From the NCBI RefSeq assembly GCF_963457605.1, contig NZ_OY735139.1, forward strand, positions 3,874,001-3,938,000: a DNA stretch of 64,000 nt, given 5' to 3'. Shown piece by piece: positions 52,767-63,584 of this stretch. The DNA comes from an uncultured Gellertiella sp. Lineage in GTDB: Bacteria > Pseudomonadota > Alphaproteobacteria > Rhizobiales > Rhizobiaceae. Position numbers and translations under genes: made by a program. Every line of letters begins with the position of its first letter. The stretch's first letter is position 1. The notes under the pieces were generated by a model. It was not told the DNA's origin, made no database searches, and saw nothing but the letters and a program-made list of their open reading frames with translations.

Positions 52767-52904
52767 TTACTGCGAGCAATCCTGGCCATCCGCGCAGCCG
52801 TCGGACGAGGGGGCCTCCTCCGCCGGGGCTTCTTCTGCCGGGGCTGGCTCCTCGGCCTGTGGCTCCTCGGCAGGGGCCGGCTCTTCAGCCTGTGGCTCCT
52901 CGGC
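52767..52904 (-). pseudogene. Out-of-frame 3' end of the Tyr/Pro-rich gene
   Basis: Reading on from the G9 tract in the next frame gives PPAEEPQAEEPAPAEE.. and then APSSDGCADGQDCSQ and TAA, clearly the same repeat and a plausible native C-terminus with two cysteines. It lies 27 nt before the bidirectional terminator. Confidence 0.75.
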
Positions 52905-53420
52905 GGGGGGGGGCTGGCTCCTCGGCCTGTGGCTCCTCGGCAGGGGCCGGCTCTTCAGCCTGCGGCTCCTCGGCAGGGGCCGGCTCTTCAGCCTGCGGTT
53001 CCTCGGCAGGGGCCGGCTCTTCAGCCTGCGGCTCCTCGGCAGGGGCCGGCTCTTCAGCCTGCGGTTCCTCGGCAGGGGCCGGCTCTTCAGCCTGCGGTTC
53101 CTCGGCAGGGGCCGGCTCTTCAGCCTGTGGCTCCTCGGCAGGGGCCGGCTGGTCGGCCTGCGGCTCTTCCGCCGGGGCCGGCTCTTCAGCCTGTGGCTCC
53201 TCGGCAGGGGCCGGTTCGGCCTGCGGCTCCTCGGCAGGGGCCGGCTGGTCTGCCTGCGGTTCCTCGGCGGGTGCCGGTTCGGCCTGTGGCTCTTCGGCAG
53301 GAGCCGGCTGGTCTGCCTGCGGCTCTTCCGCCGGGGCGGGTTGTTCCGCCGGGGCGGGTTGTTCCGCCGGGGCGGGTTGTTCCGCCGGGGCTGGCTCTTC
53401 CGCCGGGGCTGGCTGTTCCG
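52800..53420 (-). repeat. 33-bp coding tandem repeat (Pro/Glu/Ala-rich)
   Basis: Units of 33 bp encode PAEEPQAEEPA, with variants PAEEPQADQPA and shorter PAEQPA units. The high identity between units makes copy number changes likely. The repeat creates long open frames on the plus strand that I do not take as genes. Confidence 0.9.
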
Positions 53421-54684
53421 CCGCAGCCGGCTGGTCGGGCTGGGCTTCGGGGGCCGGAGTGCTGGCGTCATCGGCGGCGGGGGCGGCCTGGGTGTCGGCC
53501 ACCGGTTCGGCAACTGCGGGCTCTACTGCCGTTGTATCTTCCGGAAGAGTGGCTGCTTCCGCGACAGGGGGTGTTTCGATGAAACTGTCGGCCGCAACCT
53601 TGTCATCGACCACCTCGACATTGTCCACCGTCGGATTCGGCACGTCCGCCACGCTCCTGACCTCAGCCGCCTGGGTTTCGATCTGCGTATTGGCCGTATT
53701 GATCTGGGTGATTTCCTGCGTGTTGACGATCGTCGTCTGGGTGACGCTTTCATAATGCTCGTAGGAAGACGCGTAACTATTTTCAAAACGCTGGTATTCC
53801 CGTCCATTCATGCCGAAATCGTAGGAATCGGCGACGACGACGGGTGTGTCGTAATAGGACCAGGAATAGGAATTATAATAGCTGGAATATTCGACATAGG
53901 AATAACGGACCTCTGCCGAGAAATAGGAATAGGATTCCTGATAATAGACCACGTCGGCGGGATGATAGACGACCACATAGTCATAGTAGCCGGAATAGAT
54001 GCCGAGCGCTTCCGACAACAGGATTGTCGCCAGCCACTGGTTGTTCAGCGAGCGGTTGGCCGCTTCGGCGCGGTCAAGGCGGCGCTGCATTTCGGCAAAT
54101 TCGTAGCGCGCACGCGGATCGCTGCCGCGCCGCTTCGAAATCGTTGCCAGCTGCTTGCGCATGCCGCTGATGCGGCGGGCATTGGCGACAGCCTTTGACT
54201 TGCTTGCCCCGGTCTTGCTGCCGGGCGAGCGCTTCAGGTAATCACGCCACAGGCTTTGCAGGGATGAAACGCCAATGGCCACTTCCTTTGCCCTTATGCC
54301 GGAAAGGCGAAAGGCATTGTCGAGGCGCGCGATGGCGGCAGAGGCTTTTGGAAGCGCCGACGCGAGCGCCTTGTTGTTCTTTGCCGCCGCCGCGGCCTTG
54401 ACCGCCCTCAAGGCTTTGGAACTGTCAATCAGCGCCTTGACCAGCGGTGCCGAGCGGACGCGCTCCTTGGCCGGTCGTGCCTTCAGGCGCTGGGAGATCA
54501 GCACCAGGGACTGTTCCATCTTGATCATCATCTGCGCGGCCGACAATTTCGCCGGTGTCGCGGCAGCGGCCTCCGACAGGGGCAGGCCTTCGAAATGGCT
54601 CCTGAAGGTCAGCGGTGACAGGGCCAGCGAAGCGCTGAGGGCAACGGACGACAGGAGCCGCAGAATGCGGGGAGGAGCGCGCAC
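52885..54684 (-). CDS. Exported Tyr-rich protein with Pro/Glu/Ala repeats, frameshifted at a G9 tract
   Basis: I do not recognise the family. The product has a signal-like N-terminus, a helical Lys/Ala-rich domain (to about 230), a tyrosine-rich stretch of about 65 residues, then a long PAEEPQAEEPA repeat tail of about 200 residues. The GTG at 54684 is preferred (AAAGGA 9 nt upstream); an ATG at 54702 is the alternative. A run of nine G (52905-52913) shifts the frame and ends the protein at 52885. With eight G the frame would continue to a TAA at 52767-52769, adding a tail ending CADGQDCSQ. Either a sequence error, a recent break, or phase variation. Confidence 0.75.
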   Translation of the reverse strand: MRAPPRILRLLSSVALSASLALSPLTFRSHFEGLPLSEAAAATPAKLSAAQMMIKMEQSLVLISQRLKARPAKERVRSAPLVKALIDSSKALRAVKAAAAAKNNKALASALPKASAAIARLDNAFRLSGIRAKEVAIGVSSLQSLWRDYLKRSPGSKTGASKSKAVANARRISGMRKQLATISKRRGSDPRARYEFAEMQRRLDRAEAANRSLNNQWLATILLSEALGIYSGYYDYVVVYHPADVVYYQESYSYFSAEVRYSYVEYSSYYNSYSWSYYDTPVVVADSYDFGMNGREYQRFENSYASSYEHYESVTQTTIVNTQEITQINTANTQIETQAAEVRSVADVPNPTVDNVEVVDDKVAADSFIETPPVAEAATLPEDTTAVEPAVAEPVADTQAAPAADDASTPAPEAQPDQPAAAEQPAPAEEPAPAEQPAPAEQPAPAEQPAPAEEPQADQPAPAEEPQAEPAPAEEPQADQPAPAEEPQAEPAPAEEPQAEEPAPAEEPQADQPAPAEEPQAEEPAPAEEPQAEEPAPAEEPQAEEPAPAEEPQAEEPAPAEEPQAEEPAPAEEPQAEEPAPAEEPQAEEPAPPRRGATG

Positions 54685-54991
54685 GTAATTTTGTCCTTTC
54701 ATGTGAGACAATGTTGCAGCGGAGCGGATGACCTGTTCACGAAGCCGGATGCCTGGCTGACATCACGGGTTTTCCTGACCATCGCACGCGTTCCGATGTG
54801 TCCTATTGCGCGCCACGCTAGCGCAGCCAGGAATTTACCGCAAATTGCTTGTGCCTTTCCCGTCACCCAATTTTGGTTATTCTGAATGAATTCAGAGAAA
54901 TTTGTCCTGGCGCTGTCGTCACGGCACCCTTGTCGGTCACGTTCAGAGCGGTGGCCTCTGACGGTGGCGCCATATCCAGACTCAAATAATC

Positions 54992-56961: not shown

Positions 56962-57020
56962 AGTTTGTCAGGGAAAACACGCAAACGACGTTTTGCGTCT
57001 GGAATCCGGTTTTCCCGAGC
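56959..57020. repeat. Type A repeat with a nested palindrome
   Basis: TAGAGTTTGTCAGGGAAAA continues as CACGCAAACGACGTTTTGCGT, a nested palindrome in place of GT, then GGAATCCGGTTTTCCCG. The right arm GACAAAC is missing. The same nested module occurs, inverted, at 58151-58311. Confidence 0.85.
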
Positions 57021-57176
57021 GAACGTGCGTGCAGGGCGGACAAATGGGCGCGGCTGTTCCGCAGACAGTGTTTGCGCGACTGCGTCACAAGATATTCAGC
57101 TCGTTGCCGCCGGAAACGAAACAGCGCGACGGCCTGTTCAGGGGCCGCCGCGCCTTGCTGTCCGGTCTTGTCCGGA

Positions 57177-58150: not shown

Positions 58151-58311
58151 TAGAGTCTGTCAGGTTCATATTGAACCAGCCAGACTCTGGCTCCCCTTGT
58201 TGTCGTTTGTCTTTTCGCTCAAACAAGTTTGAGCGCTCAAACAAGTTTGAGCGGGAAAACCGGATTCCAGACGCAAAACGTCGTTTGCGTGTTTTCCCTG
58301 ACAAACTCTAG
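58151..58311. repeat. Inverted type A repeat with three nested palindromes plus type P module
   Basis: 58151-58189 is a type P palindrome (one arm with two changes). From about 58199 to 58311 is a type A unit on the minus strand with two tandem copies of CGCTCAAACAAGTTTGAGCG and one CACGCAAACGACGTTTTGCG module inverted. It is the most built-up member in the window. Confidence 0.9.
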
Positions 58312-58409: not shown

Positions 58410-58658
58410 TCAGTGCGGCATGGCCAGTCGCACGGGTTCCGGTTCTTCGCCATGAAGACCCGTCATGTCATCATCGGCATACATTTCCTGAAGCAAGGCA
58501 CCCAGTGCCAGATCCAGGCAATAGGCCGGAAACTCGGCCTGCAAGGCATGGGCACGCTGCTTGGCAAAGGTCACCAGCCGGGCGAGCGACGCCAGTTCTT
58601 TCAGTTCGTCTTCAATTTCGGTGTCGTCAGGGCCGAAACTGCCGTTAAATTTACCCAT
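58410..58658 (-). CDS. Small helical protein of unknown function (82 aa)
   Basis: 82 residues, MGKFNGSFGPDDTEIEDELKELASLARLVTFAKQ.. with an amphipathic helical middle (EIEDELKELASLARLVTFA) and an acidic end; one cysteine. No family is recognised. The ATG at 58658 has AAGGA at about 7 nt; ATG at 58661 and 58673 are alternatives. It lies between a repeat and the TfuA gene, on the same strand as the YcaO cluster. Confidence 0.55.
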   Translation of the reverse strand: MGKFNGSFGPDDTEIEDELKELASLARLVTFAKQRAHALQAEFPAYCLDLALGALLQEMYADDDMTGLHGEEPEPVRLAMPH

Positions 58659-58873
58659 CATTCCATCCTTCATCCCTGTCCCGGGTCTGCGTACCGGGAC
58701 ATCCGGTCAAACATCGCGTCACGTTGGCAACAAACAGGCCTGCATGAACGCGTATCGATCCCCAGTGCCCCGCATGTTTCAGGATGCGGTGGCGTGAGGA
58801 GGACCATAGGGGAGGACGGACCGGAATGCGCGTGACACAAGCGTGACACAACTCCTGCGGTTGTTATTTTTTA

Positions 58874-59590
58874 TTAATCATCACAGGATTGAATATATTG
58901 CCTGAACCCGTGCGTCTGCAGAAATGTCCAGTCGCTGGGGCAGGGACCCAGCCTGTCGGGCATCGCGGATACGGTGTCCAGAAGCAGGAGCGCGTCGAGC
59001 CTCTTGCGGTTGACGGTGGTCGATTGTACCTGCTGCAACAAGGTCTCGTCCGTCTGCATTCCGGCCCGCGACGCCTGCCGGACCACTGCCGGCCAGGTCC
59101 GATCCTTGAAAAACAGCTCTCGTGCGGCGCGGGCAAGCCCGGCATGGGTCTCCGGTGTCACCAGTCCCCGGTCCAGCATGGCATCCAGCGTCGCGTCGAT
59201 ATTGACCAGCGGCTCACTCAACGCGGCATAGCCCAGTTCCGCCGGCGCATGGCTCTGGGCGACATCTGCGTCATCGATGCGCAGGCCGTTGAGATAGGTG
59301 TCGGCGATCACGCCAATCGGTTGCATGCCATAGGCTGCGCATTCCGCTGCCCTCAGCGCCCCCATCGAGGCCGCACCCAGCACCTGGCAGCCCCCGGACA
59401 GGGCGTAGAGAATTTCCTTGTGCCAGACCGACTGCACATATTCAAAATAGCCGTCGATCAACCCGATCACCGTCGCCCCCTGCTGGCAGGCGAGGTAGAG
59501 ATCTCCCTGCCTTGCGGGCGGGCGCACCTCCAGCGCGGGAAACAGGCTGGCTGCATCCGGCACGGTCGGGCCTGCAAAGACGACCTTCAT
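58874..59590 (-). CDS. TfuA-like protein
   Basis: 238 residues from MKVVFAGPTVPDAA, with the TfuA family's segments FAGPT near 5, GLIDGYFE near 43, HKEILYALSGG near 57 and GAASMGALRAAE near 71-82. TfuA-like proteins work with YcaO enzymes, first in trifolitoxin of Rhizobium and later in thioamidation of archaeal McrA and of peptides such as thiovarsolins, where they are thought to supply sulfide. The ATG overlaps the YcaO stop by 4 nt, so the two are co-translated. Length and motifs are complete. Confidence 0.92.
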   Translation of the reverse strand: MKVVFAGPTVPDAASLFPALEVRPPARQGDLYLACQQGATVIGLIDGYFEYVQSVWHKEILYALSGGCQVLGAASMGALRAAECAAYGMQPIGVIADTYLNGLRIDDADVAQSHAPAELGYAALSEPLVNIDATLDAMLDRGLVTPETHAGLARAARELFFKDRTWPAVVRQASRAGMQTDETLLQQVQSTTVNRKRLDALLLLDTVSAMPDRLGPCPSDWTFLQTHGFRQYIQSCDD

Positions 59591-60897
59591 CGGGCCAGAA
59601 CCTGCCGCAGCGCCCGCAGTCCATAGGGGCGCAAACGGTTGCCTTCCGGATTTTCGAGATCGGGAACCAGCACCTTTTCCACCGCAAACGGCCAGTCCGG
59701 TGCCGACATCGCGACCGAACAGATCAGGCCGCATCCGGTCCTCTTCAGCGCATCAAGACACTGTTCCATCATCCCGGCCAGACCACCGGTCTGGCCTGTC
59801 AGACCACCGGTCTGGCCTGTCAGACCACCGGTCTGGCCTGTCAGACCACCTGCATCCAGCCCCCATTGCGGGAAGGGCCCGGGTTCTGCGATGAAACTCT
59901 CGAGAATATCTGCGGCCAGCGGCCTTTCGAACACGGCGGGATCGATATCGTCGCGCGCGCCGCTGATATAGGTCATGCGCGACTGGGCGGCCTCCGTCAG
60001 GGCGCGGATCGCGGCGCGCAGAGCGGAAGGATGGGCACCGCTGCCAGCGGTCACATCCGTCTGGCGCGCGGCCCGCCGGTGGCGGATGTCGGCAGCGGCG
60101 AGGAACACCATGATGCAGGGAATGCCGTTATCACTGCGCATGTCGAAGAACACAGTCGTCAGGCCCGCCGCTCGAACCCTTTGCAACAGTCCATCCAGCA
60201 CCGGATCCCGGAATTCGCCGGGATCAAACCGGGTGCGGGCCCGATCCTCGGGCTTGCGCAGATACCACAGCGTTTCGGCATCCCGTTCGATACGTTCCAG
60301 CAGGCCGTGAAACCGCGCTTCTGCTGCCGTATTGCCCGAGGCGAGACCATCGGAGGACTGCCAGAAGCGGTGATCATCCGTGACCCGGTCGAGAACGACT
60401 GCGTCGAAAGGAACCATTACCCGCTTTTCGGTGAGGAGATCGACGCCATCCACCCAGGCGATCATCTCGTCCTTGTGGATATCGCTGGCGCTCGCCCCGA
60501 TCAGGGCCGGTAGCTTCTGCGGATTCTCGCCTTCGGCGCGCAATTGTGCCGCCGTCGCCAGGCGCGGCGTGAGTGGCGGATCGGCGGCAACGGCCCGCTC
60601 CAGCGATTCCATCGCGGCGGAGACCTTGGCGTCGATGTCGCGGATACCTTTGCCCTGGTTGATGACGATAGACCGGGCATTCGGCATGACCGCGTTCCAG
60701 ACGGGAATACCGAGCCGGTCCAGGCCGGTGAGGCGCGACAGGCGCGTGATGCCGAAACGCGTCATCTGGGGCGCGATCCGCCCCCATGTTTCTTCCGGGC
60801 TGATCTGGCGGTCACTATAGGATGTGTGGGGTGGAAAAGCAGGCGGCAGCTGAGAGCCGACGCCTGCAACAGGGGCCCCGATCGGGGCGCCGGTCAT
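59587..60897 (-). CDS. YcaO family ATP-dependent cyclodehydratase/thioamidase
   Basis: 436 residues. YcaO enzymes activate a peptide amide by phosphorylation to form azolines or thioamides. Visible motifs: SAAMESLERAV (93-103), SGNTAAEARFHGLLERIERD (187-206) and TEAAQSRMTYISGARDDID (301-319), the glutamates that bind ATP and Mg2+. Residues 351-371 are a perfect GGLTGQT triple repeat from a 21-bp tandem repeat, an insert not expected in the family. Partner TfuA follows, and a 72-residue ORF precedes with 4-nt overlap. A substrate is not obvious. Confidence 0.93.
   Translation of the reverse strand: MTGAPIGAPVAGVGSQLPPAFPPHTSYSDRQISPEETWGRIAPQMTRFGITRLSRLTGLDRLGIPVWNAVMPNARSIVINQGKGIRDIDAKVSAAMESLERAVAADPPLTPRLATAAQLRAEGENPQKLPALIGASASDIHKDEMIAWVDGVDLLTEKRVMVPFDAVVLDRVTDDHRFWQSSDGLASGNTAAEARFHGLLERIERDAETLWYLRKPEDRARTRFDPGEFRDPVLDGLLQRVRAAGLTTVFFDMRSDNGIPCIMVFLAAADIRHRRAARQTDVTAGSGAHPSALRAAIRALTEAAQSRMTYISGARDDIDPAVFERPLAADILESFIAEPGPFPQWGLDAGGLTGQTGGLTGQTGGLTGQTGGLAGMMEQCLDALKRTGCGLICSVAMSAPDWPFAVEKVLVPDLENPEGNRLRPYGLRALRQVLAR
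59780..59850 (-). repeat. 21-bp tandem repeat inside the YcaO gene
   Basis: Units at 59780-59800, 59801-59821 and 59822-59842 are identical, plus 8 bp of a fourth. In frame each gives GGLTGQT, so length changes keep the reading frame. Confidence 0.92.
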
Positions 60898-61112
60898 TTC
60901 GACAGCGGCATCGACACGGTGTCGAACTTGCCGGCGAGAACCGGCGTCTGACCGCCGATGGCAACGGCAAAATCAACACCGCTGACAACAGCGCCATTTG
61001 CGGCAAGGCGATCGGCATAGTGTGCCGGCATGGCCGCGACGGTCTTCTGGTCGAGATCGACCATCCACAGCCCGTCTTCATTGGGTAAGCCCAGGATCAC
61101 TACTTTTGACAT
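60894..61112 (-). CDS. 72-residue protein, candidate substrate or accessory of the YcaO-TfuA pair
   Basis: Starts MSKVVILGLPNEDGLWMVDL and ends GKFDTVSMPLSK. It has four serines and three threonines but no cysteine, several glycines, and no signal peptide. AGGAGG lies 7 nt before the ATG, the strongest site in the cluster, and its TGA overlaps the YcaO ATG. As the first gene of the operon it could be a RiPP-like precursor, a partner protein, or a leader for coupling. No family is recognised. Confidence 0.7.
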   Translation of the reverse strand: MSKVVILGLPNEDGLWMVDLDQKTVAAMPAHYADRLAANGAVVSGVDFAVAIGGQTPVLAGKFDTVSMPLSK

Positions 61113-61134
61113 GCTCCGTCCTCCTGAAGTCGTG

Positions 61135-63090
61135 CTAAAGGCCGGCCTTTTTCAGGCCGTGACGATAGTGCTCCCGCTGCCACTGTTCCCGGATTGGCAA
61201 GACGGACAACCATCTATCGACATCGAAATCCGGGTATTGCTCCTTGAGCTTTCGCGACAGGGCCTTGGCCTGCCGCATGTCACCAATCATCGCCCTGCAG
61301 GCAGCCGCCAGTCTCAATGCCGGCGTCTGGTCGCTCATGCGATTGATATAGGCGAGTGCCGCGAAGTAATCTTCCAGATAATAGTTGGCTCCAGCGGCTG
61401 CCCAAAGGTAACCGTCCGGTGTCACGGGGTTAAGTTCAATCGCCTTCAAGAGTTTTGCCAGTCCTTCCGCCGGGCGGGAGGCGTGAATCAATGTATCTCC
61501 GAAGTCTGCAATAACATCTGCATATTGTGGGCTAAGGCTTTCCGCAGTCAACAGCGCTTCGACACTTTCATCGAATGCACCCAAAAATAGTTTTGTGACG
61601 CCAAGCTCGCGGTAGCCCGAGGTCAGGTCGCCACAGAGTTTTATCGCCTCCTTTGCCTGTTGTTCAGCGTTTTCGAGCAACCCAGGTTCGCCACGTGCCG
61701 TAATCAGCCACTCCAGATGGTTTGTACGCGCCAATCCGCTCAACGCTGGACCGAAGTCAGACTTTTCCTGCAAGGCCAGGCGGAAGGATTTTCGGGCGCG
61801 GCGGATTTCCGGCAGCGTCAGATGCTGCAGGGAGCTCTGCCCCTGGAGGTAGTGATAGTAGGCCTGCGGGTTACTTTCAAAATACAATCGTGATACTTCA
61901 TTACGCTCTACATGGGCACTTATACTTCTGGTCACCTGCTGGGCGATGGCCTGCCGCTGGATCATGTAGCGTTCCGCATCCAGCGGAAAGCGATCCGCCC
62001 AGACCACCGCGTCGCTGGGGACATAGACGAGTTGCGCAAACAGCCCCATCTCGCCGGCCGCGACATTGATCCTTGTATCGAGGACATAGGCAATCGCATG
62101 CTGGATGATCAACTGCGAGCGGTCCTGCTGGCGGCTGATCCGGGCGGCGGTATAAGGTGCGACGATCCGCAGGGAGTGTGAACTGCACAGGCCGATGGTG
62201 ATGTCTTCAAGCAGCGCCGCGACCAGCCCATCCGGATCGTTTTCACCCGGGGGCAGAATGGCCAGGCGGGGCAGGGCGGCCAGGTCTTCCCGGGCTTCCA
62301 GCCGGGCATTTTCGCCGGAGGCCTTGGGCAAGGCGAATTGTCGTTCGAACAGGCTGCGCAACAGGTCGAGCGCCCCGTCAGTCTGTCTGGCGGGATGGTG
62401 AGGGATCGGCATATCCGGCGCGAATGCTCTAGTCGCTTGCGCAGCAAGTGCCGATGCCGCATCCAGTCCATGTTGTGGCCGGGCCTGTGGTGGCTGGCGG
62501 TCGAGAATGCCGCGCGCAACCTGGTTGTCCGGATCACTCTCAAACAGCCTGCGGGCCGCACCACGGATCAGCGGCGCATTTTCAAACTCCCCGGATTGCG
62601 GAATCGCCCGCCGGATTGCATCGCTCATCAGCTCTGCAAAGGCGAGCTGTTTCTCTTCGATCCAGTCGCACAGCGATGGCGACGGGTTTTGATATTCGCT
62701 GAGAAAGGGCAGCCGGTACTGGGCGAGTGCATGTTCCAGCCGTACCGGAAGATCGCCTTCGCTCTGCCTGATCGACAGCAGGACATCGAGATCAGCAATC
62801 AGCGTTCCCGCATTGAACGAAATATCAGACTGGCTGAAAGTCAGGAAGTGTACGCCCAGCTCGTCCTGTCGGGCAATGGTGCGGGTGGCGGTCTGGCGCA
62901 GGTTGGTCAGGCCGCGGGCCATGTCGACCCCGCCCCAGATCAGCTTCGCCAGCCGGGCCCGGGAAACCCGGGATTCGCCCTGGGCCAGGAGATAGGCAAT
63001 GATCAGCAATCCCTTTTCAGGAAAGCTGATCATTTCCCTGTCATGATTGTAAAGCCGCAAATCGCCCGAGGTCTGCAGTCTGAAAGGCAT
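61135..63090 (-). CDS. Winged-helix/TPR transcriptional regulator (SARP/BTAD-like)
   Basis: 651 residues. N-terminal winged helix (about 1-95, RLQTSGDLRLY..LARLIWG-type), then a BTAD-like helical domain to about 175; about 265-400 resembles the TolB-like domain of CadC/cyclase regulators (LAILPPGEND..IAYVLDTRINV..VVWADRFPLD); from about 415 to 640 are tetratricopeptide helices. No membrane segment. It lies 22 nt upstream of the 72-residue ORF on the same strand and probably controls the cluster. ATG at 63090 is chosen over a GTG nine bases earlier; neither has a strong site. Confidence 0.85.
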   Translation of the reverse strand: MPFRLQTSGDLRLYNHDREMISFPEKGLLIIAYLLAQGESRVSRARLAKLIWGGVDMARGLTNLRQTATRTIARQDELGVHFLTFSQSDISFNAGTLIADLDVLLSIRQSEGDLPVRLEHALAQYRLPFLSEYQNPSPSLCDWIEEKQLAFAELMSDAIRRAIPQSGEFENAPLIRGAARRLFESDPDNQVARGILDRQPPQARPQHGLDAASALAAQATRAFAPDMPIPHHPARQTDGALDLLRSLFERQFALPKASGENARLEAREDLAALPRLAILPPGENDPDGLVAALLEDITIGLCSSHSLRIVAPYTAARISRQQDRSQLIIQHAIAYVLDTRINVAAGEMGLFAQLVYVPSDAVVWADRFPLDAERYMIQRQAIAQQVTRSISAHVERNEVSRLYFESNPQAYYHYLQGQSSLQHLTLPEIRRARKSFRLALQEKSDFGPALSGLARTNHLEWLITARGEPGLLENAEQQAKEAIKLCGDLTSGYRELGVTKLFLGAFDESVEALLTAESLSPQYADVIADFGDTLIHASRPAEGLAKLLKAIELNPVTPDGYLWAAAGANYYLEDYFAALAYINRMSDQTPALRLAAACRAMIGDMRQAKALSRKLKEQYPDFDVDRWLSVLPIREQWQREHYRHGLKKAGL

Positions 63091-63119
63091 CGGCTTCACA
63101 CCAGAATGAGGTTGCCCGA

Positions 63120-63584
63120 TCAGTTCGGACCGCTGGTATGGTCCTCTGTCGTGTCCGTTACAGGGGTCAAATTCGCAGTCTGGCCGTCGGCAATCGTCTT
63201 GACCAGGGCCACGAATTTCAGACGCACATCGGCGTCGGTGATTTTTCCAAAGGCCCGGTTCAGCGCCAGGCCTTCTTTCGACGCCATGAATTCCGAAAGC
63301 GCCTTCGATACAGCATAGGTCTCGACACCTTCAAGGCTGACACCGGGCTCTGATTCTTCCTGTTGGAAGAAATAGGCCGGCGGCACGCCAAGCACTTCGG
63401 CAATCCGCATCAACCGGCTGGCACCAATTCGATTGGTGCCCTTTTCGTATTTCTGGACCTGCTGGAAGGCGACGCCGATCTGCTCGGCCAGCCGTTCCTG
63501 GCTCATGCCGACAAGCCTTCGGCGCATCTTCACGCGGGCTCCGACATAATGATCCACGGTACTGGGCGATCGTTTCAAACTCAC
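63120..63584 (-). CDS. XRE-family helix-turn-helix regulator
   Basis: 154 residues: HTH region SQERLAEQIGVAFQQVQKYEKGTNRIGASRL near 28-58 (read in parts), then a C-terminal helical dimerisation part. The start is GTG with AGGAG 6 nt upstream. It lies 30 nt before the winged-helix/TPR regulator on the same strand. Related regulators in rhizobia are common and often control stress or prophage genes. Confidence 0.9.
   Translation of the reverse strand: MSLKRSPSTVDHYVGARVKMRRRLVGMSQERLAEQIGVAFQQVQKYEKGTNRIGASRLMRIAEVLGVPPAYFFQQEESEPGVSLEGVETYAVSKALSEFMASKEGLALNRAFGKITDADVRLKFVALVKTIADGQTANLTPVTDTTEDHTSGPN

What the first reader, a model, noticed from the sequence alone, without database searches (positions are those of the whole stretch)
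58874..63584. YcaO-TfuA operon with a 72-residue leading ORF and two stacked regulators: possible undescribed peptide or protein modification system
Seen: five minus-strand genes in tight order, with XRE regulator, winged-helix/TPR regulator, 72-residue ORF, YcaO and TfuA; the last three overlap by 4 nt each and share one strong AGGAGG. Known: YcaO plus TfuA install thioamides, and TfuA was first linked to trifolitoxin in Rhizobium. Inferred: the small ORF is the substrate or its carrier. It has no cysteine, so cysteine-derived azoles are excluded in it; serine/threonine azolines or a backbone thioamide remain. No transporter, protease or dehydrogenase gene is visible nearby, so the product may be intracellular.
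Basis: partly seen in the sequence, partly recalled or inferred. Interest (0 to 1): 0.8.

Follow-up and report, generated by a model that had tools for sequence, protein, structure and literature searches.

The report
Self-regulated thioamide peptide cassette in rhizobia
A small conserved gene set in root-nodule bacteria and their kin appears to make a short, chemically altered peptide and to control one small partner gene from a dedicated switch, so the peptide may be a signal rather than only an antibiotic.

Summary
In detail: XRE regulator, winged-helix/TPR regulator, 72-aa ORF, YcaO and TfuA, with the stated overlaps. The ORF is very probably a precursor peptide. Relatives lie just upstream of YcaO in 68 of 80 loci chosen by YcaO alone; 77 of 77 genomes with a strong match also hold TfuA, against 45 of 317 others; median dN/dS is 0.21. 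Its leader is conserved; its tail carries G-x-hydrophobic-[DE] in 114 of 136 distinct precursors, in tandem copies in some, as in thiovarsolin precursors. Cys occurs in 4 of 136.

The cassette is larger than reported. A further gene, D (58410-58673), follows TfuA behind an 11-bp-spaced direct repeat and a positioned -10 box, the layout used by SARP activators. The winged-helix/TPR regulator looks SARP-like.

Best reading: a thioamidated RiPP cassette with its own output switch. That the peptide itself is the signal is inference, with mixed statistical support. YcaO-TfuA clusters in rhizobia are known; this precursor family, gene D and its promoter were not found in ten paper searches.

The parts
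63120..63584 (-). XRE-family regulator, first gene of the cassette
   Evidence: Pfam HTH_3 4.9e-15; a relative was recognised in 40 of 87 loci
61135..63099 (-). SARP-like regulator: winged helix, middle domain, TPR repeats
   Evidence: TPR models in 48 of 56 aligned relatives, BTAD in 3, Trans_reg_C in 1; the window's own copy has only a weak TPR match. Present in 67 of 80 YcaO-selected loci
61120..61125 (-). AGGAGG ribosome-binding site of the precursor gene
   Evidence: sequence
60894..61112 (-). 72-aa precursor peptide gene (A): leader plus C-terminal core
   Evidence: predicted structure of the leader
60921..60932 (-). core motif GKFD (residues 61-64), proposed site of modification
   Evidence: pattern G-x-phi-[DE] in 114 of 136 distinct precursors, about 16 of 136 with shuffled tails
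59587..60897 (-). YcaO enzyme
   Evidence: PF02624 1.1e-62; nearest NCBIfam model is the McrA-glycine thioamidation YcaO, 185 of 365 bits needed
59774..59850 (-). 21-bp tandem repeat (GLTGQTG) inside YcaO; not needed for the model
   Evidence: insertion not seen in the 15 aligned relatives
58874..59590 (-). TfuA partner protein
   Evidence: PF07812 2.7e-37
58830..58850 (-). direct repeat TGTGTCACGC-TT-GTGTCACGC, 11-bp period: proposed regulator site
   Evidence: the only match in the genome with up to 3 mismatches, itself exact; conserved upstream of D
58803..58808 (-). TATGGT, -10 box of gene D
   Evidence: TAnnnT at +27 to +32 from the second half-site over 115 distinct sites
   Evidence: 67 of 87 loci, 69 of 80 YcaO-selected loci; structure prediction; median dN/dS 0.14

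Best explanation
This is a conserved thioamidated-RiPP cassette of Rhizobiaceae with its own output switch. The 72-aa ORF is the precursor. YcaO recognises its leader (about residues 1-50) and, with TfuA, puts a thioamide into the short C-terminal core, most likely at or next to the Gly of G-x-phi-[DE]. A housekeeping protease then releases a peptide of a few residues. The SARP-like TPR regulator encoded just upstream binds the 11-bp-spaced repeat before gene D and activates D; I propose that it does so when it senses the mature core. Shown by sequence: the cassette, the precursor family, the core repeats, gene D and its promoter. Inferred from family knowledge: thioamidation and SARP-type binding. 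Inferred only: peptide release, peptide sensing (about 0.35 likely) and the role of D.
For: Precursor: beside YcaO in 68 of 80 YcaO-selected loci; all 77 strong-match genomes hold TfuA; purifying selection; conserved leader predicted to fold at moderate confidence with a low-confidence tail; core motif and tandem copies. Chemistry: McrA-glycine thioamidation models are the nearest NCBIfam models for both enzymes; few Cys, 42 of 114 cores without S/T/C; precursor-YcaO-TfuA suffices for thiovarsolins in PMC6511847. Switch: gene D in 69 of 80 loci; repeat in 65 of 67 D loci with up to 2 mismatches and in 68 of 69 with a relaxed pattern; -10 box in register; one site in the own genome; recognition-helix residue 69 is S in 18 of 18 CA-type loci and K/Q/T in 38 of 38 TC-type loci. 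Sensing: core similarity follows regulator similarity in 44 loci (partial r 0.416, p 0.002; above a tree null, P at most 0.007).
Against: No measured product, modification or binding. 10 of 80 YcaO loci lack the precursor, 15 lack TfuA and 11 lack D within the stretch held; S. meliloti pSymB has precursor, YcaO and D but no TfuA beside them. Some precursor-regulator pairs have no YcaO beside them (L038, L122, L124, L129, L168). The operator/recognition-helix agreement is a single event on the tree. The core-regulator link falls to 0.18 in 72 merged loci, where YcaO shows 0.22, and the tree null reaches the middle-domain value in up to 17.7% of runs. The leader also correlates with the middle domain (0.274). 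No signal peptide, exporter or protease was recognised. 22 of 136 precursors lack the motif.
Confidence: 0.6

Rival explanations
1. The product is an ordinary thioamidated antibiotic or bacteriocin against related bacteria; gene D is its immunity protein and the regulators only time production.
For: Known bacterial YcaO-TfuA products are bioactive peptides (abstract of PMC8120280). D is small, follows the enzymes and is almost always kept with them.
Against: No exporter recurs in the cassette or was found among the neighbours scanned. D, not the biosynthetic genes, carries the conserved promoter. Cores are very short, acidic and partly repeated.
Confidence: 0.25
2. The small ORF is not the substrate but a carrier or accessory protein of YcaO/TfuA; the true substrate is gene D or a distant protein.
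For: The first half is predicted to fold and is the more conserved part. D also has recurrent C-terminal residues, often H, C or Q.
Against: The tail, modelled at low confidence, carries a motif that is tandemly repeated in some species, as cores are. D has its own promoter. L159 keeps precursor and D without YcaO/TfuA in the stretch held.
Confidence: 0.1
3. YcaO makes azolines from Ser/Thr of the tail instead of a thioamide.
For: 60 of 114 motif-bearing cores have Ser just before the Gly.
Against: 42 of 114 cores have no S/T/C from the residue before Gly to the one after the motif. TfuA is the thioamidation partner (PMC6511847, PMC8120280). YcaO lacks a C-terminal PxPxP (that this marks azoline-forming YcaO is recalled).
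Confidence: 0.08

Closest known systems
Thiovarsolin cluster varA-varY-varT (Streptomyces; PMC6511847)
   Same: Small precursor with a C-terminal core that is repeated in some relatives, followed by YcaO and TfuA; no dedicated protease or essential transporter
   Different: Other precursor family and core; here the cassette also holds a SARP-like regulator, usually an XRE regulator, gene D and a dedicated D promoter; no product is known
YcaO-TfuA clusters of Rhizobium in genome surveys (PMC8120280, PMC10434180)
   Same: Same enzymes in the same bacterial group; probably includes this cassette
   Different: The main text seen gives no description of this precursor family, gene D or promoter; the supplements could not be read
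McrA-glycine thioamidation enzymes (YcaO/TfuA of methanogens)
   Same: Nearest NCBIfam models for both enzymes; Gly as likely target
   Different: Scores lie well under the curated cut-offs; here the substrate is a short peptide, not a large enzyme
SARP regulators (AfsR, DnrI, PimR; Streptomyces)
   Same: Winged helix plus TPR-like parts; heptamer-like direct repeats 11 bp apart over the -35 region
   Different: Alphaproteobacterial; BTAD recognised in only 3 of 56 relatives; long middle domain and C-terminal TPR
RRNPP quorum-sensing pairs (Firmicutes; abstract of PMC10075063)
   Same: Small propeptide gene next to a helix-turn-helix/TPR regulator gene; short C-terminal peptide as proposed ligand
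   Different: Winged-helix SARP-like receptor, peptide predicted to be enzymatically modified, Gram-negative host, no recognised export signal

Membership tests
YcaO-TfuA thioamidated RiPP cluster | YcaO and TfuA genes side by side | tested here: met
YcaO-TfuA thioamidated RiPP cluster | conserved short precursor gene beside them | tested here: met
   68 of 80 YcaO-selected loci; dN/dS 0.21
YcaO-TfuA thioamidated RiPP cluster | preferred residues of TfuA-associated YcaO (Met, His and Ala of the three ATP motifs, PMC8120280) | tested here: inconclusive
   An invariant Met (M96) and His (H197) lie in what I take to be motifs 1 and 2; numbering was not mapped and the Ala was not checked
YcaO-TfuA thioamidated RiPP cluster | thioamide in the product | not testable with these tools
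   needs mass spectrometry
McrA thioglycine YcaO/TfuA equivalogs | score above the curated cut-off | tested here: not met
   185 of 365 bits and 163 of 235 bits needed
SARP regulator | winged helix followed by BTAD | tested here: inconclusive
   BTAD in 3 of 56 relatives (best 1.5e-8), Trans_reg_C in 1; none in the window's copy
SARP regulator | 11-bp-spaced direct repeats over the -35 region of a target promoter | tested here: met
   definition from PMC10972967 passages; that this regulator binds them was not tested
RRNPP quorum sensing | propeptide gene next to a receptor gene with TPR repeats | tested here: met
RRNPP quorum sensing | secreted propeptide with an export signal | tested here: inconclusive
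   no Sec-type start visible by eye; no predictor was run
RRNPP quorum sensing | peptide binding by the receptor | not testable with these tools
   only indirect, mixed covariation
azol(in)e-forming YcaO | Cys/Ser/Thr in every core | tested here: not met
   42 of 114 cores without S/T/C near the motif

The most novel reading that the evidence does not exclude
A Gram-negative peptide-pheromone system in which a YcaO/TfuA-thioamidated oligopeptide, differing in sequence between species, is read inside the cell by a SARP-type TPR receptor that switches on a single dedicated output gene (D). It would be widespread in Rhizobium, Sinorhizobium/Ensifer, Shinella and Neorhizobium.
Probability: 0.3. 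Interest if true: 0.9.

Novelty: new variant of a known kind. Interest (0 to 1): 0.66.

Why it matters
YcaO-TfuA clusters are abundant in rhizobia (over 500 Rhizobium clusters in PMC8120280), and a 2023 plasmid survey says the role of the thioamide clusters on rhizobial plasmids is unknown and that more work is needed on why they are conserved (PMC10434180, one passage). This cassette offers a defined precursor, a predicted core and modification site, and a one-gene promoter that can serve as a direct reporter in laboratory strains such as Sinorhizobium meliloti. If the signalling reading holds, thioamidated peptides would be a new class of bacterial pheromone, in bacteria that live with plants.

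Tried and rejected
Searches with nothing useful: Pfam, NCBIfam and PDB profile searches of the precursor and D families gave only scattered or chance-level matches. YcaO has no match in the phage collection. I saw no shared palindrome before the XRE gene (40 loci). A class-wide sample of 385 genomes gave the own genome and one match at 9e-4. The precursor alignment was too variable for a collection scan.

Weakened on testing: operator half-site and recognition helix agree fully, but by a single event on a quick tree. The core-regulator link was strong in 44 loci and weak in 72 merged loci, so sensing stays an inference; the first test, with 65 loci, had only YcaO as control. The strict repeat search found 42 of 69 D loci. 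The 27 others were then read by eye and mostly show a 12-bp spacing or a changed half-site; the relaxed pattern giving 68 of 69 was set after seeing them. In the own genome the reversed control pattern also gave one match within 3 mismatches.

Rows dropped before counts: seven weak precursor genomes (E over 1e-4) were taken out of 84. Searches used only loci with all five genes and a motif-bearing core, thinned by regulator identity (54 to 44; 111 to 72). Only the best 80 of 238 YcaO relatives were returned. Alignments hold 79 of 86 matched precursor ORFs (A2), 66 of 67 D proteins (A3), 56 of 73 regulator frames (A4) and 16 YcaO proteins (A5). The first 87 loci were mostly fetched because they match the precursor, so their precursor counts are not evidence of co-occurrence.
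Full report
WHAT IS THERE. The five genes lie as described. The window is part of a 4.17-Mb genome. A genome placed in the same genus (G004) has a contig of 569,968 bases, the length of the Gellertiella hungarica DSM 29853 contig, so the host is probably a Rhizobiaceae member near Gellertiella; this is inference from contig length. YcaO and TfuA are clear Pfam members; the 72-aa ORF has no family. The seven neighbouring frames scanned give an alpha-2-macroglobulin, a weak outer-membrane-barrel match, MipA, a GST and three without a match. Across 87 loci, besides the precursor, YcaO and TfuA, the frames that recur most are the TPR regulator (72 loci) and XRE (40). The next clusters (6 to 19 loci) look like frames antisense to XRE, mixed frames with ABC proteins, pieces of gene D and an SH3-like protein.

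THE SMALL ORF IS A PRECURSOR. Of 61 near relatives, 9 genomes (own included) have it at E below 1e-4; in 8 of the 9 it sits right before YcaO-TfuA. Of 394 genomes of the family, 84 have it at E up to 0.01 and 77 at 1e-4; 122 have TfuA; all 77 have TfuA, against 45 of the other 317. In a class-wide sample of 385 it was not found strongly outside the family. To avoid choosing loci by the ORF, I scanned a one-genome-per-species collection with a YcaO alignment: of the best 80 of 238 relatives, 70 hold the precursor in the stretch fetched (68 just upstream on the same strand; L202 and L228 on the other strand), 67 the TPR regulator, 65 TfuA, 69 gene D, 55 all of these. Of the 10 without it, six (L203, L206, L207, L208, L235, L258) still show an XRE gene, by eye, before YcaO, which looks like loss of the middle. 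Codon-level conservation: median dN/dS 0.21 over 468 pairs, all below 1; dS is high (median 1.33), so the values are rough.

LEADER AND CORE. The consensus leader runs MAKVVVIG--G---LW-ADL-AGTV...KGVD-AVA. AlphaFold2 gives three short strands and a helix within residues 4-37 (mean pLDDT 73, pTM 0.52; blocks 1-30 at 81-88), and a tail at 53-60. The tail carries G-x-phi-[DE] in 114 of 136 distinct precursors, against about 16 with shuffled tails. The Gly is invariant in the first nine aligned but under 90% in the 79-row alignment. By the pattern 17 precursors have two or more copies; in two of these the second looks like chance. Clear arrays are FSGKLE x4 (Rhizobium alarense, L257), GGYMD x3 and GGFMD x2-3 (Shinella and others), GLHE x3, RLD-type x4 (L195) and RMD-type x6, five of them with Gly (L189). 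Some precursors (for example L197, L210, L254) repeat a longer unit that includes the end of the leader plus AFSG. The 22 without the motif are mainly the divergent MAKYFIIGE-like group and this long-unit group. Cys occurs in 4 of 136; of 114 motif-bearing cores 60 have Ser before Gly and 42 have no S/T/C from the residue before Gly to the one after the motif. This favours a backbone thioamide; Gly as site is inference, by analogy with McrA, whose enzymes are the nearest NCBIfam models, under their cut-offs.

GENE D AND ITS PROMOTER. An 87-aa gene (58410-58673) follows TfuA. Profile search finds it in 67 of the first 87 loci and 69 of the 80 YcaO-selected loci. Its model is a helical hairpin (residues 17-43 and 47-66 confident, mean pLDDT 74); Pfam, NCBIfam and PDB searches gave no convincing relative. 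Between TfuA and D lies TGTGTCACGC-TT-GTGTCACGC. At 11-bp period with up to 2 mismatches in 16 bases it occurs in 65 of 67 D loci; with a strict test in 42 of 69 of the second set; with a relaxed pattern (11 or 12 bp) in 68 of 69, the pattern matching 103 times in all on both strands of 1.03 Mb. A reversed-sequence control gave no 11-bp match, against 47. Aligned on the repeat, 115 distinct sites show T (65%), A (75%) and T (78%) at +27, +28 and +32: a -10 box that puts the second half-site over the -35 region. In the own genome the repeat occurs once, exactly. SARP sites are described as heptamer repeats, classically in 11-bp units, overlapping the -35 region (PMC10972967, passages).

THE REGULATOR. 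Of 56 aligned relatives, 48 match a TPR model, 3 match BTAD (best 1.5e-8) and 1 Trans_reg_C, so SARP-like is a reasonable, not a formal, filing. The middle domain reminds me of the TolB N-terminal type (recalled, not tested). Two operator types exist, TCACGC and CAACGC; position 69 of the regulator, in the presumed recognition helix (recalled), is K/Q/T in 38 of 38 of the first and S in 18 of 18 of the second. A quick tree shows one switch only: agreement, not independent proof.

DOES THE REGULATOR READ THE PEPTIDE? In 44 thinned loci, similarity of cores follows similarity of the regulator after leader, YcaO, TfuA and D are removed (0.416, permutation p 0.002; the other four are slightly negative or negative), with a peak in the middle domain (0.465), above traits simulated on the locus tree (P at most 0.007). 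As controls, the leader also correlates with the middle domain (0.274) and D weakly (0.145). In 72 merged loci the regulator effect is 0.18 (p 0.003), YcaO shows 0.22 (p 0.003), and the tree null reaches the middle-domain value in 0 to 17.7% of runs, by rate and controls. I count this as suggestive only.

KNOWN WORK. Seen: PMC8120280 (abstract and whole results section), PMC6511847 (passages and section 19), PMC10972967 (passages), PMC10434180 (one passage); all others as search listings with the starts of abstracts. YcaO-TfuA clusters in rhizobia are known in bulk. Ten searches of an open-access library showed no description, in what I saw, of this precursor family, gene D, the promoter or a YcaO-modified signal in Gram-negatives. 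Supplements could not be read, so the precursors may be listed there. Two annotated plasmid records name the regulator 'adenylate cyclase' and 'peptide antibiotic resistance protein' and the precursor and D 'hypothetical protein'. A relative of the S. meliloti precursor is on 59 plasmid records.

VERDICT. A real, conserved, self-regulated YcaO-TfuA RiPP cassette: a new variant of a known kind. My estimates: substrate role 0.85, thioamide 0.7, SARP-type control of D 0.75, peptide sensing 0.35.

Noticed in passing
window 59774-59850 (-): In-frame 21-bp tandem repeat, three copies (GLTGQTG), in a variable stretch of YcaO; the insertion is not seen in the 15 aligned relatives.
   Followed up: partly
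window 56965-57030 (+) and 58244-58304 (-): Inverted copies of a short intergenic element: six-frame ORFs on opposite strands begin with the same 18 residues.
   Followed up: no
window 52885-54711 (-): A protein with a long run of Ala/Pro/Glu/Gln-rich repeats; no Pfam match at 0.001.
   Followed up: no
L043 13932-19490 (+), window 63932 onward: A large bacterial alpha-2-macroglobulin gene, with PAN domain, transcribed away from the XRE gene.
   Followed up: partly
L038, L122, L124, L129, L168: Regulator-precursor pairs or lone precursors without YcaO, TfuA or D in the stretch held; they may be satellite modules served by enzymes elsewhere.
   Followed up: partly
L260 (S. meliloti Ak57 pSymB) and Ensifer/Sinorhizobium loci such as L232, L233: Precursor, YcaO and D without TfuA beside them; the S. 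meliloti-like genome G748 has two TfuA matches elsewhere.
   Followed up: partly
L197, L210, L254: Long precursors that repeat the end of the leader together with the core, about 20-30 residues per unit.
   Followed up: no
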